Positions 1 through 6,587 of a stretch of DNA of 6,587 nucleotides are shown here, one piece after another. The stretch's first letter is position 1. Each line of letters opens with the position of its first letter. The position numbers and the translations under genes were made by a program. The notes below the pieces were generated by a model that saw only the letters and a program-made list of their open reading frames with translations, did no database searches and was not told where the DNA came from. Origin of the DNA: Deltaproteobacteria bacterium (GTDB lineage Bacteria > Desulfobacterota > JADFXK01). The stretch covers positions 1 through 6,587 of the forward strand of contig JADFYA010000218.1 in assembly GCA_015233285.1 (NCBI GenBank), read 5' to 3'.

Positions 1-201
1 GGCGGACAGGGCAACCTGAATGAAGTAATTGAACAATTGCATATTAGTCCCGGAGATACGACGGCGGATAGGAGATTCTCCCTAGAGACCGTTCGCTGTT
101 TAGGCGCCTGTGGGCTGGCACCGGTGATGATGGTGGACGAAGATACCCACCGCCAGGTTAAATCTTCAAAGGTGCAGGAAATCATCAAGGATTACGACTA
201 G
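1..201 (+). CDS. hoxE: HoxE/NuoE-like [2Fe-2S] subunit of the hydrogenase diaphorase (C-terminal part only)
   Basis: The reading frame is open from base 1 to the TAG at 199-201 and gives the last 66 residues of a protein that begins upstream of the window. It contains [20 protein letters not shown], the hallmark of the thioredoxin-like [2Fe-2S] fold of NuoE/HoxE/HydC. The two cysteines of VRCLGAC (residues 33 and 37 of the fragment) are the second ligand pair; the first pair must lie upstream. In this family the subunit carries one [2Fe-2S] cluster beside the FMN subunit in the cytoplasmic diaphorase module. It is followed after 15 bases by the HoxF gene in the same reading frame, so the two are separated only by this stop codon and a Shine-Dalgarno spacer. 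NuoE of complex I or HydC of an electron-bifurcating hydrogenase are the alternative family names. The downstream hoxFUYH genes favour HoxE. Confidence 0.93.
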
Positions 202-216
202 CCGGGGAGCGATCTA

Positions 217-3200
217 ATGGGTAGGTTAAAAGTTGAACATCTCTATCGCATAAAAGGTGACGTCCTCAGGTCTTCAGTCCTGGAGCCGGATAAGCTCAGA
301 GCCAGGGTCACGGTCCATATGGGCACTTGCGGCATTTCCTCCGGCGCGGACAAGGTCTGGCAGGCCCTCCAAGAGGAACTGGCCGATTCCGGGCGGACCG
401 ATATCTTGTTGACCACTTCCGGTTGCGCCGGCATGTGTAATCGAGAACCCCTGATCACGGTTGAGCGGTTGGCAGAAGAAGCCATAAAATATGCCAACGT
501 GACTCCGGAACGGGCCAGCGACATCTTTCGTAACCATGTCCTGAACGGCCGGATCATGACGGACTGGACCTTTGCCCGAGGCTGGGAACAGCCGGACCAT
601 GCCTTCGAGGGTCCACCGGCCACTGACGCGGCTGCGGTCCCATCGATCAAAGACAACTCGTTTTTCGGGATGCAGGAACTCCGGGTCATGCGCAACCGGG
701 GGCTGATCCGGGCCGAAAGCCTGGAGGAATACATTGCCACAGACGGTTACTTTGCCGCGGCCAAGGCGCTGTATCAAATGTCGCCCCAAGATATCATCCA
801 GGAGATGAAGGCCTCGGGCTTAAGAGGTCGCGGCGGGGCCGGATTCCCCACCGGCATCAAATGGGAATTCGCGTCTAAATCCAAGAATGACGTCAAATAC
901 GTCCTGTGTAATGCCGATGAAGGTGACCCAGGCGCATTTATGGACCGCTGCGTTTTAGAATCCGATCCCCACTCGGTACTGGAGGGGATGATCATTGCCG
1001 CCAAGGCCATTGGTTCCCGGCAAGGGTTTATCTATTGCCGGGCCGAATATCCGCTGGCCGTCAAAATGCTCAACCTGGCCATCGACCAGGCCCGAGAACA
1101 CGGTCTCCTAGGCCAAGATATTCTGGGCTCCGGTTTTGATTTTGATCTGGAAATTTACCGAGGGGCCGGCGCTTTTGTCTGCGGTGAGGAAACGGCCTTG
1201 ATGACCTCCATTGAAGGCAAACGGGGTGTGCCCCGACCCCGGCCACCCTTCCCGGCCATTCAAGGATTATGGAAAAAACCGACTATCTTGAATAACGTGG
1301 AAACCCTGGCCTCGGTTCCTCAAATTATTCTTAAAGGCGGCAAATGGTTTGCCGGGATCGGGACCCAGCGGAGCCGGGGAACCAAGGTTTTTGCGCTGAC
1401 CGGAGATGTCCGGAATGTGGGCCTGGTCGAAGTTCCCATGGGCACTGCACTGGGCACCATCATCCATGATATCGGCGGAGGCATTCCCAAAAACAAAAAG
1501 TTTAAGGCGGCCCAACTGGGTGGTCCCTCGGGCGGTTGCATTCCGGCCCAGCACCTCAATGCCCCGGTAGACTACGAGTCCATCCTTAAGTTAGGGGCGA
1601 TCATGGGTTCGGGCGGCATGATCGTCATGGACGAGGACAAGTGCATGGTCGATGTCGCCCGGTTCTTCATGGAATTCTGCGTTGACGAGTCCTGTGGCAA
1701 GTGTACTCCATGCCGGGTGGGCACTCGGCAGATGCTGGGCATCTTGACCCGAATTTGCCAGGGCCGGGGCCGCGAAGGCGACATTGAAACTTTGGAGAAA
1801 TGGGCGTCCATCATTCAAAACACCGCCCTGTGCGGCCTGGGGCAAACCGCGCCCAACCCGGTGCTGTCGACTTTGCGCTATTTCCGATATGAATACGAGG
1901 CTCATATCCGTGATAAACGCTGCCCGGCCGTAGCTTGTGTGGACCTTTTTAAGGCCCCCTGCCAACATGCGTGCCCGGCCGGGATGGACGTGCCGGCCTA
2001 CCTGGCCCTGGTCCGAGCCGGACGATTGGAAGACGCCTATCAGGTTTTACTCAAAACCAACCCCTTTCCCAGCATCTGCGGCCGAGTCTGCGACCATAAA
2101 TGCGAGGCCAAATGCCGGCGAGCCACTTTGGATGAAGCCGTCAACATTAAGTATCTGAAACGGTTTATCACCGACCAGGCGGTTAGACCCAAACCGACCC
2201 CCATCCCGATTAGCCGAATGGAAAAGATCGCCATCATCGGCGCCGGTCCCTCGGGTTTATCTGCGGCCAGAGAACTGGCCCGGCGGGGTTACCACGTGAC
2301 GGTGTTTGAGGAACTGCCGGAACCCGGCGGGATGCTTCGCTATGGTATCCCGGCTTATCGGTTGCCCCGGGAGATTGTCAAGAGCGAGATAGAGGCCATC
2401 ACCGGCCTGGGCGTGGACCTGCGATGTAATACCAGGGTGGGCCGGGACATCTCCTGGGCCAAAATCAAAGAAGACTTTGATGCCGTTTACCTGGCCGTGG
2501 GGGCCCACCAAAGCCAAGACTTAGGTGTGGAAGGTGATAACCTTAACGGAGTGGTTGGCGCGGTGGAGTTTCTCAGGCAAGTAAATCTGGACCTGACTCC
2601 TCGGGTGGGACGGCAAGTGGCCGTTGTTGGAGGTGGCAATTCCGCCATTGACGCGGCCCGCTCCGCCTTGCGGTTGGGCGCCCAGGAAGTGACTATTTTG
2701 TACCGGCGGCTGAGAGAAGATATGCCCGCGCAAGAGCACGAGATCCGGGCCGCTGAAGAGGAAGGCGTCAAGATTGAATACCTGGTGGCGCCCATCAGGC
2801 TGGCCGGTCAGGACGGTCAGGTGGGAAAAGTGGTCTGCCAGCGCATGTCTTTAGGTGAATTTGACGCGACCGGGAGGAGAAAACCCTTGCCCATTGCCGG
2901 AGCCGAATTCTCGGTGGAGGCGGACCAGGTGATCACGGCCATCGGTCAAAAACCGGACTTGCCTTTCCCCGGCCAGGACGAAATGGGCGCCGTCAAGCTG
3001 TCCCCGGCCGGACTCATTGCGATCAAGGTGAATAGCCACACCCGCACAGACGAGGCTATGGTTTTTGCCGGTGGTGATGCCGTCACCGGTCCCAACACCG
3101 TGATCTGGGCCATCGCCTCTGGACGGCGGGCGGCGGAAGAAGTTGACGCAGCTATCCGCACCCGCAATAACGAACCGGCTTACGTTGCCTCACCTGAGCC

Positions 3201-3387
3201 GGAGATCGACATTCCCCGGCAGGTTGATGAAGAAACCTTGGAAAAACCACGCGGTCAAATGCCTGAGATGTCACCCGCGGCCAGGCGTTGTGACTTCTGT
3301 GAGGTGGAAATTGGTTTTGACCGGGATACGGCCCAGGCCGAGGCTTGCCGGTGTTTGAGGTGCGATATCAAAGAGGCGTCGGCTTGA
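217..3387 (+). CDS. hoxF: HoxF/NuoF-like NAD(H)-FMN subunit fused to a GltD/NfnB-like FAD-NADP(H) oxidoreductase
   Basis: A 1056-residue multidomain diaphorase subunit. Residues about 28-85 are a thioredoxin-like [2Fe-2S] domain with Cys38, Cys70 and Cys74. Residues about 150-560 are the NuoF core: GLRGRGGAGFPTG (201-213) and NADEGDPGAFMDR (232-244) for FMN/NADH, GAGAFVCGEETAL (317-328), and the N3-type [4Fe-4S] ligands Cys493, Cys496, Cys499 and Cys539. Residues 569-650 are the N-terminal double-cluster domain of the GltD/DPYD/NfnB family, with Cys569, 574, 582, 586, 621, 625, 629 and 633. Residues 668-980 are its flavoprotein part: the FAD fingerprint GAGPSG (675-680), a second dinucleotide site GGGNSA (805-810) with the arginines of LYRR (828-831) that usually mark NADP(H), and AGGDAVTG (951-958). 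The tail has five more cysteines (1025-1049). NuoF/HydB proteins are usually 420-600 residues, so this is a fusion; the frame is uninterrupted. The ATG is the first after the hoxE stop and has GGGGAG at 204-209, 7 bases upstream. The domains are clear; the physiological electron flow is inferred. Confidence 0.94.
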   Translation: MGRLKVEHLYRIKGDVLRSSVLEPDKLRARVTVHMGTCGISSGADKVWQALQEELADSGRTDILLTTSGCAGMCNREPLITVERLAEEAIKYANVTPERASDIFRNHVLNGRIMTDWTFARGWEQPDHAFEGPPATDAAAVPSIKDNSFFGMQELRVMRNRGLIRAESLEEYIATDGYFAAAKALYQMSPQDIIQEMKASGLRGRGGAGFPTGIKWEFASKSKNDVKYVLCNADEGDPGAFMDRCVLESDPHSVLEGMIIAAKAIGSRQGFIYCRAEYPLAVKMLNLAIDQAREHGLLGQDILGSGFDFDLEIYRGAGAFVCGEETALMTSIEGKRGVPRPRPPFPAIQGLWKKPTILNNVETLASVPQIILKGGKWFAGIGTQRSRGTKVFALTGDVRNVGLVEVPMGTALGTIIHDIGGGIPKNKKFKAAQLGGPSGGCIPAQHLNAPVDYESILKLGAIMGSGGMIVMDEDKCMVDVARFFMEFCVDESCGKCTPCRVGTRQMLGILTRICQGRGREGDIETLEKWASIIQNTALCGLGQTAPNPVLSTLRYFRYEYEAHIRDKRCPAVACVDLFKAPCQHACPAGMDVPAYLALVRAGRLEDAYQVLLKTNPFPSICGRVCDHKCEAKCRRATLDEAVNIKYLKRFITDQAVRPKPTPIPISRMEKIAIIGAGPSGLSAARELARRGYHVTVFEELPEPGGMLRYGIPAYRLPREIVKSEIEAITGLGVDLRCNTRVGRDISWAKIKEDFDAVYLAVGAHQSQDLGVEGDNLNGVVGAVEFLRQVNLDLTPRVGRQVAVVGGGNSAIDAARSALRLGAQEVTILYRRLREDMPAQEHEIRAAEEEGVKIEYLVAPIRLAGQDGQVGKVVCQRMSLGEFDATGRRKPLPIAGAEFSVEADQVITAIGQKPDLPFPGQDEMGAVKLSPAGLIAIKVNSHTRTDEAMVFAGGDAVTGPNTVIWAIASGRRAAEEVDAAIRTRNNEPAYVASPEPEIDIPRQVDEETLEKPRGQMPEMSPAARRCDFCEVEIGFDRDTAQAEACRCLRCDIKEASA

Positions 3388-3446: not shown

Positions 3447-5393
3447 ATGGATGCTATTGCGAATATCAGCCTAAAGATAGACGGAATTGAGGTGATGGTC
3501 CCAGATGGCCTGACCATCTTGGAGGCGGCCCGGCAAAACGGCATTCACATTCCGACCCTGTGCCATCACCCGGCCCTTTCGGCCTGGGGCGGCTGTCGGC
3601 TATGCGTGGTGGAGGTGGATGGCGCTCCCCGCCTGGTGGCCGGTTGTGTTACGCCGGTGCGTAAAGGCATGGACGTGATCACCTCCAATGACCGGATCAT
3701 CGAGGCGCGCCGGACCATCCTGGAATTCCTTTTCGCAGAACGGAACCACTATTGCATGTTCTGTGCCGTGAGCGGCGATTGCGAACTCCAGGACCTGGCC
3801 TATGAGTATCAGATGGACCATCTCACCGTACCGCCGTTGCAGCAGGAATTCCCGGTTGACACCAGCCATGATGATATGGTCATGGATCACAACCGGTGCG
3901 TTCTGTGCGGGCGCTGTGTCCGGGCCTGCCGGGAGCTGGTCGGCGATTCCGTTCTGGATTTTCAAAACCGGGGCGGTCAATCCCTGATTACGGTCGATGT
4001 CACCGGACAACTGGGTGGATCAACCTGCGTTTCGTGTGGTGCGTGTCTCCAGGTTTGCCCCACCGGGGCCATCTTTGACCGTTACCGGACACACTACGCG
4101 GTCAAGGGGAAATCCAAAGACTGGGTAAGCAAAGAGTCATACTGCCCACAATGTGGGCTGCTCTGCCCCACCGTATCGGTAGTGCGGCGAAACAGTCTGC
4201 TCAGAATAGAAGGGCAAATGCCCGGCCGGGAACCGGATCGGGGACAATTATGCCACAAAGGCCGGTTCGACCCGGTCAAAACCACGGGGCCCAGACTCAC
4301 CGAGCCGTTAGTCCGGGGGGATGACGGAACCTGGCAAAAATCCACCTGGGCAGCGGCCCTGGACAGGATCGCCGGCGGACTGGAAGACATCCGAAAAAAC
4401 AACGGTCCCCAGGCCCTGTTTGGACTGATCTCCAGTTGTTGCTCCAATGAAGAGCTTACCCGGTTTCAGCAATTCATCACCACCTGTTGGCCGGAAGGAT
4501 ACCTGGACACCCTGGATGGCCGACATTTCCGAACACTGCTCGGGGCCGGGAGCCTCATCCCGGAAGTCCCCTGGGCAACTATGCTTGAGGCGGATTTTAT
4601 CCTCCAGGTGGGGGTGATTTCTTCGCAGAGCCATCCCATCATCACCTCGCTCACTCGGCGGGCGATTTTGGAAAATAAGACTAAGGTGGCCGTTATCGGA
4701 CCGGAAAACCCCATCGGTCCCTGGGCCAGCTTCCATCTGCCGGCCTCCCACGAGGAGTTGCTTCTGACCGTGAATGCCATTTGCATTAAGATTAATCCGG
4801 ACCTGGCCACCGACCCGGCCAAGGGAACTTTATCTCATGTGGGGACAAAGGGGTTTGCCGACTTTATCAAGTTAATCGAAGACTCTGAAAAGGCGCTCAT
4901 TATTATAGGTGAGGCGCTGACCGAAATAGGCGACTCGGCCGTGATCAAGCGCCTGGTGGACCTGGCCCAATTTAAGAGCCACGGGGCATCCCAAGCCCCC
5001 AGGCTGATCATTCTCAAACCCGCCGGAAACAGCGCCGCGGCCTGGAGTCTGGGCGTCGCGGCCCGGCAAAGCGTCCGGAATCAGTTGAAAGGTGGTCTGA
5101 TTTGCGCCACCGGTGAAGACGGCTGGGATCCGGTTCTAATCGGCACGCCTGGTAACCTGGATTTCTTGGCCGTGCTGACTCCCTACTTTTCTGAAACGTT
5201 AGCCCGCCAGGCCTCGGTCTTGCTGCCCATTCCCACCTGGATGGAAGTTGACGGAACCTATGCCTTCGCCGATGGGTCCGGGAGCCGATTCAAGCGCCGG
5301 GTCCTGACCCCACCGCCGGGAGTCGGTTCGGTCGAAGAGACGTTAACCGCTCTGTCCGGCCGAATTTCAATGAACCCCGGCCAGCCGGACTAG
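3447..5393 (+). CDS. hoxU: HoxU/NuoG-like multi-cluster Fe-S subunit with a C-terminal molybdopterin-oxidoreductase-like domain
   Basis: A 648-residue electron-wiring subunit linking the diaphorase to the hydrogenase. Residues 1-80 are a plant-type [2Fe-2S] ferredoxin domain (Cys39, Cys50, Cys53, Cys67). Residues 101-112 are the His-Cys3 [4Fe-4S] site (His101, Cys103, Cys106, Cys112, then ELQ), with the short H-x-C spacing of HoxU. Residues 151-161 (Cys151, 154, 157, 161) and 194-204 (Cys194, 197, 200, 204) are two classical [4Fe-4S] ferredoxin motifs. Cys233, Cys236, Cys240 and Cys269 form an N7-like site opening a molybdopterin-oxidoreductase fold that runs to the end, with a NuoG-like ending around MEVDGTYAFADGSG. 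No catalytic Cys/Sec context is evident, so it is probably structural or Fe-S only. HoxU is normally about 240 residues, so the C-terminal 400 residues make this more NuoG- or HydA-like. The frame has TAG directly before the ATG, and GAGAGGA at 3434-3440 sits 6 bases upstream, which fixes the start. Confidence 0.93.
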   Translation: MDAIANISLKIDGIEVMVPDGLTILEAARQNGIHIPTLCHHPALSAWGGCRLCVVEVDGAPRLVAGCVTPVRKGMDVITSNDRIIEARRTILEFLFAERNHYCMFCAVSGDCELQDLAYEYQMDHLTVPPLQQEFPVDTSHDDMVMDHNRCVLCGRCVRACRELVGDSVLDFQNRGGQSLITVDVTGQLGGSTCVSCGACLQVCPTGAIFDRYRTHYAVKGKSKDWVSKESYCPQCGLLCPTVSVVRRNSLLRIEGQMPGREPDRGQLCHKGRFDPVKTTGPRLTEPLVRGDDGTWQKSTWAAALDRIAGGLEDIRKNNGPQALFGLISSCCSNEELTRFQQFITTCWPEGYLDTLDGRHFRTLLGAGSLIPEVPWATMLEADFILQVGVISSQSHPIITSLTRRAILENKTKVAVIGPENPIGPWASFHLPASHEELLLTVNAICIKINPDLATDPAKGTLSHVGTKGFADFIKLIEDSEKALIIIGEALTEIGDSAVIKRLVDLAQFKSHGASQAPRLIILKPAGNSAAAWSLGVAARQSVRNQLKGGLICATGEDGWDPVLIGTPGNLDFLAVLTPYFSETLARQASVLLPIPTWMEVDGTYAFADGSGSRFKRRVLTPPPGVGSVEETLTALSGRISMNPGQPD

Positions 5394-5400: not shown

Positions 5401-5406
5401 ATGACC

Positions 5407-5949
5407 ATGGAAAAACCGAAAGTGGCCACAGTCTGGCTGGAAGGATGTTCCGGTTGCCACATGTCGTTTCTGGATCTGGATGAAGGATTGGCCGACATCC
5501 TGGCCGCGGTGGAGCTGACCGTAACGCCCATCACGGATTTCAAGGACTACGATTTTCCCGAGGCGACCCTGGGCATTATCGAGGGCGCCGTGGGCAATAC
5601 AGAACAACTGGAAATACTTCATAAGCTGAGGAAAAAGTGTCAAGTCTTGATGGCCTGGGGCGACTGTGCGGTATTTGGCGGCGTCAACACTTTGCGCAAC
5701 CACATTCCCACGGAGGCCCTGCTGACACGAGGTTTCATCCAAACGGAAAGTACCGTTGACGGTGTTTTGCCGGTCCATCAAGAGCTGCCGGCCCTATTAC
5801 CTCAGGTGTTGGCGGTGAATGAGATTGTGCCTATCGAAATCTATGTCCCGGGCTGCCCGCCTTCTCCGGAGGCCATCGCCCACGCCCTGCAGGAAGTCCT
5901 TCAGGGTCGGATACAGCGGATGCCGACCGGTCTCTTACATTTTGACTGA
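5407..5949 (+). CDS. hoxY: [NiFe] hydrogenase small subunit, HoxY type
   Basis: A 180-residue small subunit holding the proximal [4Fe-4S] cluster that passes electrons between the NiFe site in HoxH and the HoxU chain. The N-terminus reads VWLEGCSGCHMSFLDLDE, the signature of cytoplasmic group 3 small subunits. The four expected cluster ligands are Cys14 and Cys17 (GCSGC), Cys87 (WGDCAVFGG) and Cys150 (VPGCPPSPEA). There is no Tat signal and no C-terminal medial/distal cluster domain, which fits the short HoxY family of about 180-200 residues and a soluble enzyme. The ATG at 5407 is chosen over the one at 5401 because of the Shine-Dalgarno spacing. It follows hoxU by 13 bases and is almost certainly cotranscribed with it. 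An F420-nonreducing hydrogenase small subunit is the main alternative, but those are usually longer and have other neighbours. Confidence 0.95.
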   Translation: MEKPKVATVWLEGCSGCHMSFLDLDEGLADILAAVELTVTPITDFKDYDFPEATLGIIEGAVGNTEQLEILHKLRKKCQVLMAWGDCAVFGGVNTLRNHIPTEALLTRGFIQTESTVDGVLPVHQELPALLPQVLAVNEIVPIEIYVPGCPPSPEAIAHALQEVLQGRIQRMPTGLLHFD

Positions 5950-5960
5950 TGCCACCCTCT

Positions 5961-6017
5961 TGTCATTTCGAGCTAAGGGAGAAATCTTAAGATTCCTCAC
6001 ATGCGTTCGGAATGACA
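5961..6017. repeat. Dispersed-type imperfect palindrome (REP/MITE-like) in the hoxY-hoxH gap
   Basis: This 57-base element starts TGTCATTTCGAGC, ends GTTCGGAATGACA, and is centred on the perfect palindrome AATCTTAAGATT (5983-5994). Folding the left arm (5961-5988) on the right arm (5989-6017) pairs about 22 of 28 positions with one bulged base; three of the mismatches would be G-U pairs in RNA. No long T run follows, so it does not look like an intrinsic terminator. I recognise the TGTCATT..CGAGC...GAGGAATCTT style from dispersed intergenic repeats in many bacterial genomes. Copy number in this genome cannot be seen from one window. It codes for nothing evident. Confidence 0.8.
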
Positions 6018-6078
6018 AACTTGGAATCGTTGCCTTTTTGGCTGCGGCCAGGCCGCTCTGTGTTGAGCTCTTTTAAAC

Positions 6079-6091: not shown

Positions 6092-6587
6092 ATGGACCAA
6101 CGAAAGATCACCATAAATCCCGTCAGCCGGGTGGAAGGGCATGGGAAAGTAACCATCCACTTAGACGATCAGGGCCAGGTGGCTGATGCCCGTTTTCATG
6201 TTGTCCAGTTTCGAGGCTTTGAAGCTTTTTGCCGGCACCGGCCCTATGAAGAAATGCCCATTATCACACAACGTATCTGCGGCATCTGCCCGGTCAGCCA
6301 CCAACTGGCTTCAGCCAAGGCCTGCGATGTCATATTAGGACAAGAAATCCCCGAGACTGCCCGGTTGCTTCGGGAACTACTGCACATGGGCCAGTATATC
6401 CAGTCGCACGCCCTCCATTTCTTTTACCTGGCCAGTCCCGACTTGCTCTTAGGCTGGGACTCGGACCCGGCCAAACGTAATGTGGTGGGCGTCATGGCCG
6501 CATTTCCGGAAGCTGCGGCTAAAGGAATCAGGCTGAGAAAGTTTGGCCAGGAGATAATCAAGACCCTGGCCGGCAAAAAAATTCACC
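6092..6587 (+). CDS. hoxH: [NiFe] hydrogenase large subunit, HoxH type (N-terminal part, runs off the window)
   Basis: The first 165 residues of the catalytic subunit that binds the NiFe(CN)2CO centre and interconverts H2 with protons and electrons. The N-terminus has the conserved [11 protein letters not shown] (Glu15), and residues 61-70 are [10 protein letters not shown], the L1 motif with the NiFe ligands Cys63 and Cys66. Further matches to the bidirectional HoxH family are [43 protein letters not shown] and GKKIH at the window edge. Full-length HoxH is usually about 420-490 residues; the C-terminal DPCxxC-type motif carrying the other two Ni ligands and the maturation-protease cleavage site lie outside the window. 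It follows hoxY after 142 bases containing a palindromic repeat. Group 3 (3d or 3c-like) assignment is firm at group level; the subgroup is an inference from neighbours. Confidence 0.96.

What the first reader, a model, noticed from the sequence alone, without database searches (positions are those of the whole stretch)
1921..3387. HoxF carries an extra GltD/NfnB-like flavoprotein: two flavins and two nucleotide sites in one hydrogenase subunit
Directly visible: after a complete NuoF core with its N3 ligands, the same frame continues into eight cysteines of the GltD/DPYD-type double [4Fe-4S] domain, an FAD fingerprint (GAGPSG), a second dinucleotide site (GGGNSA) with LYRR, and a closing AGGDAVTG. 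Known: HoxF/HydB enzymes have one FMN/NAD(H) site, often followed by a small 2[4Fe-4S] ferredoxin domain; the NfnB family uses FAD with NADP(H) and can bifurcate electrons. Inference: the fusion replaces the ferredoxin domain, making a hydrogenase able to couple H2, NAD(H) and NADP(H), either as a transhydrogenating enzyme or as a bifurcating one with ferredoxin as a third partner. Related NuoF-GltD fusions may exist near formate dehydrogenases and hydrogenases, so the architecture may be known but little studied biochemically.
Basis: partly seen in the sequence, partly recalled or inferred. Interest (0 to 1): 0.72.

Follow-up and report, generated by a model that had tools for sequence, protein, structure and literature searches.

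The report
Bifurcating hydrogenase with swapped NADP exit
A hydrogenase of the energy-splitting kind, from sediment-type bacteria, carries an NADP-binding flavoprotein exactly where its relatives carry a ferredoxin-docking domain, which suggests that the place where electrons leave such enzymes can be exchanged like a module; a similar fusion has been described before for another kind of hydrogenase.

Summary
ORF 217-3387 (1056 aa) is an electron-bifurcating-type HydB (BfuB), not a plain HoxF, fused in frame to a complete GltD-type FAD/NADP(H) module, in an operon HydC-HydB-HydA-HydS-HydL. B, A, S and L each match the bifurcating [NiFe]-hydrogenase of Acetomicrobium mobile best among PDB sequences. 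GltD replaces the C-terminal ferredoxin (B3/B4) domain directly after a conserved metal-hinge motif. By ligands and fold it is of the non-bifurcating StnC type (Lys ligand, C-terminal CLRC tail), not the NfnB type. In 118 B subunits the Cys/His hinge site is complete in 91/91 GltD, 16/16 ferredoxin and 2/2 duplicated-domain forms but 1/9 without an exit domain; outside that set, 0/4 FMN-less GltD forms have it. Exit domains interleave on the B-core tree; within the window's NiFe clade GltD alternates with a domain beside a formate dehydrogenase. Best reading (inferred, about 0.5): FMN-based bifurcation from H2 to NAD+, with NADP+ replacing ferredoxin as low-potential partner. The fusion is prior art for [FeFe]-hydrogenases (Zheng & Huang 2024, sub-type I BfuB); a NiFe form or the exit-port pattern was not seen in nine literature searches. 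New variant of a known kind.

The parts
1..201 (+). HydC/HoxE-type thioredoxin-like [2Fe-2S] subunit (3' part; full 170 aa in L001 with C96, C101, C137, C141)
   Evidence: PF01257 3.4e-19; full length in L001
217..3387 (+). HydB/BfuB-GltD fusion, 1056 aa
217..600 (+). N-terminal thioredoxin-like domain (H34, C38, C70, C74); matches the separate 127-aa thioredoxin-like genes beside other fusions better than those fusions' own N-termini
808..1320 (+). NuoF FMN/NAD(H) domain (PF01512, residues 198-368)
1651..1905 (+). Four-helix bundle (PF10589, residues 479-563), B1/N3 cluster C493, C496, C499, C539
1642..1938 (+). Hinge metal site ligands C476, C514, H563, C569, C574 (zinc hinge in T. maritima, B2 [2Fe-2S] in A. 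mobile)
1942..2184 (+). GltD double [4Fe-4S] domain (Fer4_20): C582, C586, C621, C625, C629, C633 and Lys648
2224..3123 (+). FAD/NADP(H) two-dinucleotide oxidoreductase (Pyr_redox_2, residues 670-969): GAGPSG 2239-2256, GGGNSA 2629-2646, LYRR 2698-2709, AGGDAVTG 3067-3090
3253..3366 (+). C-terminal tail (residues about 1013-1050) with CLRC (C1046, C1049), counterpart of the N-terminal segment of NfnB/GltD
   Evidence: (second stretches)
3447..5393 (+). HydA/NuoG-like subunit, 648 aa; cysteine sets that I assign to A1-A5; no H-cluster domain called
5401..5949 (+). HydS small subunit of [NiFe]-hydrogenase
   Evidence: PF01058; best PDB hit 7t2r_E
6092..6587 (+). HydL large subunit of [NiFe]-hydrogenase (3' end cut; CGIC present; DPCLSC in the L001 copy)

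Best explanation
The window encodes a bifurcating-type [NiFe]-hydrogenase (HydABCSL layout) whose low-potential exit has been exchanged: the ferredoxin-docking B3/B4 domain at the C-terminus of HydB is replaced by a StnC-type GltD module. Proposed path: H2 at NiFe (HydL) -> HydS -> HydA clusters -> B1 -> FMN in HydB. One branch reduces NAD+ at the FMN. [quoted passage not shown] Net: 2 H2 + NAD+ + NADP+ <-> NADH + NADPH + 2 H+, or the reverse. Shown here: the domain order, the conserved ligands, the operon and the swap pattern. Inferred: occupancy of the sites, the electron path, bifurcation, and NADP(H) as partner.
Against: No biochemistry. In the FMN-less forms GltD must draw from B1 or the alpha subunit, so a gate is not required for GltD to work. 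One B without an exit domain (L059, 546 aa) has the complete hinge site, and two short NuoF outgroup proteins have three of its four ligands. The metal there is disputed (zinc or [2Fe-2S]), so it may be structural only. The N-terminal thioredoxin domain has three Cys and His34, so a [2Fe-2S] there is open. Zheng and Huang hold that a complete B1-B5 set appears necessary; B3/B4 are absent here. Fusions beside MetVF (18 of 80 loci) do not obviously need a low-potential NADP exit. The model carries no cofactors and no coordinates were available, so no distance was measured.
Confidence: 0.5

Rival explanations
1. Non-bifurcating dual-nucleotide hydrogenase/transhydrogenase: electrons from H2 pass through B1 and equilibrate with both FMN/NAD(H) and FAD/NADP(H); the enzyme reduces either nucleotide and exchanges electrons between them without energetic coupling.
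For: FMN-less forms join only the B1 bundle to GltD and lack the complete hinge site (0 of 4) yet keep B1 and the GltD cluster ligands; three of the four (L024, L104, L106) lie beside FDH-like alpha subunits: B1-to-GltD transfer without a gate seems possible. B3/B4 absent.
Against: Hinge site kept in 91/91 full-length fusions but incomplete in 8 of 9 forms without an exit domain. HydC retained with its four cluster Cys in L001. Uncoupled NADH/NADPH equilibration would waste the usual potential difference.
Confidence: 0.27
2. The FAD in GltD is itself a second, NfnB-like bifurcation site, with ferredoxin as a further partner (the first reader's second option; also floated by Zheng & Huang 2024 for sub-type I BfuB).
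Against: That Arg is also present in StnC (R239), whose FAD is held to be non-bifurcating, so it does not discriminate. Lys648 and the C-terminal tail are StnC-like. No NfnA-like gene inside the window.
Confidence: 0.12
3. NADP(H) works as the mid-potential partner as in StnABC, and ferredoxin is reduced at some other surface; the H2 module then acts as the second or alternative input.
For: The module is StnC-type; StnC feeds NADPH electrons to FMN.
Against: In StnABC the ferredoxin domain on StnB is retained and GltD sits in the other subunit; here no ferredoxin-type Fer4 family was called in B.
Confidence: 0.08

Closest known systems
Sub-type I BfuB of group A3 [FeFe]-hydrogenases, Zheng & Huang 2024 (PMC11406978; sections 7 and 8 read)
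   Same: B3/B4 domain of BfuB replaced by DPD_II plus a C-terminal FAD/NAD(P) domain; BfuC and BfuA partners.
   Different: That is an FeFe enzyme, described in Hydrogenedentota with relatives in other phyla; the window is a NiFe HydABCSL-type operon. The paper suggests FAD as a possible second bifurcation centre; the StnC-type ligand set, the hinge-site statistics, the FDH/MetVF contexts and the exit swap are not in the sections I read.
A. mobile NiFe-HydABCSL (PDB 7t2r/7t30; PMC8880783, sections 7 and 9 read)
   Same: Closest PDB relative of B, A, S and L; hinge/B2 ligands; NiFe module.
   Different: Has the C-terminal ferredoxin domain (B3/B4) and no FAD/NADP module.
StnABC / Nfn-Bfu (8oh5, 9bov, 9n5u; PMC10482914, section 9 and passages read)
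   Same: GltD module type (Lys cluster ligand, C-terminal tail); bifurcating core homologous to HydBC.
   Different: GltD is in StnC (the A subunit), with the ferredoxin domain kept on StnB; no hydrogenase.
NfnAB (5jca, 4ylf)
   Same: Fold of the GltD half.
   Different: Glu instead of Lys ligand, tail segment at the N-terminus, NfnA partner, FAD bifurcates.
FMN-less GltD forms (L024, L104, L106 beside FDH-like alpha subunits; L025 beside StnABC-like genes)
   Same: B1 bundle followed by GltD with C-terminal tail.
   Different: No FMN/NAD domain; hinge site incomplete. M. thermoacetica FdhB, listed in PMC5736913 (section 16) with 4Fe-4S, ferredoxin-binding and NADP domains, may be of this type; that is my inference.

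Membership tests
Bfu family as defined by Schut et al. 2022 (PMC9304861) | FMN domain (IPR011538) and NADH_4Fe-4S bundle (IPR019575) in B | tested here: met
   PF01512 and PF10589; the InterPro-to-Pfam equivalence is recalled
Bfu family as defined by Schut et al. 2022 (PMC9304861) | SLBB domain (IPR019554) in B | tested here: inconclusive
   No SLBB row for the window B at E<=0.001, but sequence and model align through this region with HydB chains
Bfu family as defined by Schut et al. 2022 (PMC9304861) | 4Fe-4S ferredoxin domain (IPR017896; B3/B4) in B | tested here: not met
   No ferredoxin-type Fer4 family in B; Fer4_20 (DPD domain II) instead; alignment
Bfu family as defined by Schut et al. 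2022 (PMC9304861) | Conserved His of the B2 site | tested here: met
   H563 in 120/120 and 91/91
Bfu family as defined by Schut et al. 2022 (PMC9304861) | BfuC subunit (IPR002023) | tested here: met
   PF01257 in window 1-201 and in the full L001 copy
Sub-type I BfuABC (Zheng & Huang 2024) | DPD_II + FAD/NAD(P) in place of B3/B4 | tested here: met
Sub-type I BfuABC (Zheng & Huang 2024) | Group A3 [FeFe]-hydrogenase catalytic subunit | tested here: not met
   HydA has no Fe_hyd_lg_C row; NiFe subunits S and L follow
StnABC | GltD inserted in the NuoG-like subunit | tested here: not met
   window A (648 aa) has no Fer4_20 or Pyr_redox row
StnABC | Lys ligand of the FAD-proximal [4Fe-4S] cluster | tested here: met
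   K648 120/120 and 91/91; StnC K170
NfnAB | Glu ligand of the FAD-proximal cluster | tested here: not met
   Lys at the position; Glu in NfnB
NfnAB | NfnA-type partner subunit | tested here: inconclusive
   No such gene inside the window; the genome itself is not held
Electron-bifurcating enzyme | Coupled reduction of two acceptors | not testable with these tools
   needs the purified enzyme

The most novel reading that the evidence does not exclude
The BfuBC core is a general bifurcation engine with an interchangeable low-potential exit port behind a metal hinge: ferredoxin (Fd domain), NADP(H) (GltD), or formate/CO2 (duplicated bundle docking an FDH). Evolution has swapped the port repeatedly, even within one NiFe-hydrogenase clade, so bifurcation in this family is not tied to ferredoxin.
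Probability: 0.4. Interest if true: 0.8.

Novelty: new variant of a known kind. Interest (0 to 1): 0.56.

Why it matters
Bifurcating hydrogenases of this family are held to couple H2 to NAD and ferredoxin. If the same core can push electrons into NADP+ instead, hydrogen at low pressure can supply NADPH directly, and the mechanism (FMN gating by a mobile C-terminal domain) becomes testable by swapping natural exit domains. The pattern also gives a role to many proteins that sources name only NuoF or FAD-dependent oxidoreductase, and which a definition requiring a ferredoxin domain in BfuB would leave out.

Tried and rejected
Plain HoxF/HoxEFUYH: rejected, because the closest solved relatives are bifurcating HydB chains and the hinge site is complete. 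Frameshift or assembly artefact: rejected, because 117 of the 120 listed homologues are 980-1072 aa long and 84 of 297 genomes of one phylum match the junction at E<=1e-60. Eight GltD cysteines: corrected. NfnB-like bifurcating FAD: disfavoured. A single origin of the GltD form on the B-core tree: rejected for this sample (p-AU 2.85e-58). Limits of that test: quick trees only; 118 rows were reduced to 102 by near-identity, then the very long row L105 was dropped; the 8-change count leaves out rows of the other two exit types; the group was chosen after seeing the first tree, so the p-value is not strict.

Led nowhere: own genome (none held); no coordinates of the model reached the script box, so cluster distances were not measured. 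In literature searches I saw no paper on a NiFe HydB-GltD fusion in the listings; only open-licence PMC papers are held, so this is no proof of absence. Papers: sections read of PMC9304861 (section 4 part 1, section 5 part 1, and passages), PMC8880783, PMC10482914 (9, and passages), PMC11406978 (7, 8, and passages), PMC5736913 (16, and passages); passages only of PMC7483475, PMC5037454, PMC9499530, PMC10327494, PMC7325909, PMC6037941. Supplements were not seen. Recalled, from no call: the DPD cluster ligand scheme used to assign the tail CLRC, the assignment of HydA cysteines to A1-A5, and the Pfam/InterPro equivalences.
Full report
What is there. The window reads as a 5'-cut hydC, then hydB (217-3387), hydA (3447-5393), hydS (5401-5949) and a 3'-cut hydL (6092-6587) on the + strand. 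Against PDB sequences B, A, S and L each find the A. mobile bifurcating NiFe hydrogenase 7t2r first (701, 324, 197, 228 bits); HydC was not searched there. The nearest relatives are metagenome-assembled Deltaproteobacteria: L001 is 98% identical over the whole B. The operon C-B-A-S-L is present in L001, L003, L008 and L009; L004 holds the rest of it from a cut B. L001 supplies the missing ends: HydC with C96, C101, C137, C141, and HydL with CGIC and DPCLSC. HydA has cysteine sets that I assign to A1-A5 and no FeFe active-site domain.

Ligands. In the 120 listed homologues: B1 four Cys 120/120; C476, H563, C569, C574 120/120; C514 119/120; six GltD Cys and K648 120/120; C1046 and C1049 118 of 118 without a gap; tail Cys 1025 and 1028 are not conserved. 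In 91 fusions from loci of wider spread: C582, C586, C625, C629, C633, K648 91/91; C621 83/91; YRR is complete in at most 78 rows, the others having gaps, X or other letters there. Lys at this position is the StnC ligand K170, Glu the NfnB one, and in StnC the FAD is held not to bifurcate. The Arg that matters in NfnB is kept here and in StnC, so it does not discriminate.

Comparative test. Of 118 B subunits with a whole NuoF core, extracted from the window and the loci, 91 end in GltD, 16 in a ferredoxin domain, 2 in a duplicated NADH_4Fe-4S bundle, 9 in nothing. The hinge site C476+H563+C569+C574 is complete in 91/91, 16/16, 2/2 and 1/9. The 118 contain near-copies and a few contigs fetched twice; with near-copies removed (102 rows) the counts are 76/76, 15/15, 2/2 and 1/9. 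Of the nine, L059 (546 aa) has the complete site, two short NuoF outgroup proteins (L118, L119) have three of the four ligands, and six have none; four of the six are close relatives, so there are few independent cases. FMN-less forms (B1 bundle plus GltD; L024, L025, L104, L106) keep B1 and the GltD ligands but none of four has the complete site (a fifth hit, L097, is a contig-edge fragment and was left out). The site is a zinc hinge of the mobile C-terminal domain in T. maritima (and zinc in StnB), and a [2Fe-2S] cluster in A. mobile, according to the groups concerned; either way it goes with an exit domain behind an FMN core. Against my reading, the FMN-less forms show that GltD may take electrons from B1 without the site.

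Swaps. On a quick maximum-likelihood tree of the B core (102 rows) the window sits in a 12-row clade (SH-aLRT 99) with ten GltD and two duplicated-domain rows, L013 and L014, which need two changes. A, S and L of these two are about as close to the window's as those of GltD-type loci (S 67% and 69%, L 77% and 83% over the window's part, against S 67%, L 79% in L003). Their B has a second bundle in place of GltD (Pfam finds NADH_4Fe-4S twice in L013; alignment), and a formate dehydrogenase alpha gene is inserted (TIGR01591, 834 and 862 bits, cut-off 666). With L105 dropped (101 rows) the tree needs at least 12 changes of exit type, or 8 if only GltD and ferredoxin rows are counted, and one clade of all GltD rows is rejected. 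Quick trees and a small ferredoxin-type sample limit this.

Spread and contexts. The junction query matched 84 of 297 genomes of the phylum of G003 (the genome of L008, a Desulfobacteraceae bacterium) at E<=1e-60, 112 places by my count of the list (at most nine candidates a genome were scored, so this is a lower bound; the list also holds a few FMN-less forms). I fetched 80 of these places: the first 62 by E-value less two already held, and 20 of the other 50. By hits within 9 kb on the same strand: NiFe 8, FeFe 12, MetVF 18, molybdopterin/FDH-like alpha subunit 25, only an A-like N-terminus 6, none seen 11. The rule is coarse: some FDH-like hits are only 26-32% identical, two of these 25 are the FMN-less L104 and L106, several contigs end close by, and five places are the same contigs as loci. 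Outside this phylum, the BRC1 genome of L011/L026 (one contig) has the fusion beside an FeFe hydrogenase (NF040763, 877 bits, cut-off 765).

Mechanism. The A. mobile and T. maritima papers place bifurcation at the FMN and a mobile C-terminal HydB domain at the ferredoxin end. Replacing that domain by GltD makes NADP(H) the natural partner of the low-potential branch. Using -280, -380 and -414 mV, H2 could drive both nucleotides down to about 145 Pa, NADP+ alone only to 7.1 kPa, NAD+ alone to 3 Pa. This is plausible for low-H2 sediments, but it is arithmetic, not evidence of coupling.

Known and new. Zheng and Huang 2024 described this replacement in sub-type I BfuB of FeFe hydrogenases and asked whether FAD adds a second bifurcation centre. 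Schut et al. 2022 defined BfuB by four domains including IPR017896, a ferredoxin domain that I did not find in the window protein, and put the NiFe forms mainly in clade 49 (6 members). New as far as my nine searches reach: the NiFe form, the StnC-type identity of the module, the hinge-site statistics with two kinds of control, and exit swapping within one NiFe clade. Hence a new variant of a known kind, interest 0.56.

Noticed in passing
L013:10001-14979, L014:9851-14773: NiFe bifurcating-type hydrogenase whose B subunit ends in a second NADH_4Fe-4S bundle and is followed by a formate dehydrogenase alpha gene before HydA-S-L: a possible H2/formate/NAD three-way complex.
   Followed up: partly
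L020, L022, L023 (and 18 of 80 sampled loci): B-GltD fusions beside MetV- and MetF-like genes and a molybdopterin-type A subunit (Pfam checked for L022 only): a possible multi-subunit methylene-THF reductase complex.
   Followed up: partly
L067, L082, L088, L096: Tandem FeFe hydrogenase operons: one with a B subunit without any exit domain, then one with B-GltD.
   Followed up: no
L040, L043, L044, L052, L060, L073: B-GltD with a separate 127-to-168-aa thioredoxin-like gene, and HydC in most, but no A subunit hit nearby; some neighbours look by eye like PHP-domain and kinase-type ATPase genes, not checked by any family search.
   Followed up: no
window 5957-6022: Palindromic element between hydS and hydL (fold -24 kcal/mol, z -5.2); its core occurs at the same place in the near-identical loci L001 and L004 (L028 is the same contig as L004) and in no other of 123 loci. 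Whether it is a dispersed repeat was not tested.
   Followed up: partly
L021:10612-13530: A-subunit-like molybdopterin protein with a HydC-type thioredoxin domain fused to its C-terminus, beside a B-GltD gene.
   Followed up: no
L024:3623-6328: FDH alpha gene in two pieces of one frame with a TGA between them, next to an FMN-less GltD gene, consistent with a selenocysteine codon; left unjoined.
   Followed up: no
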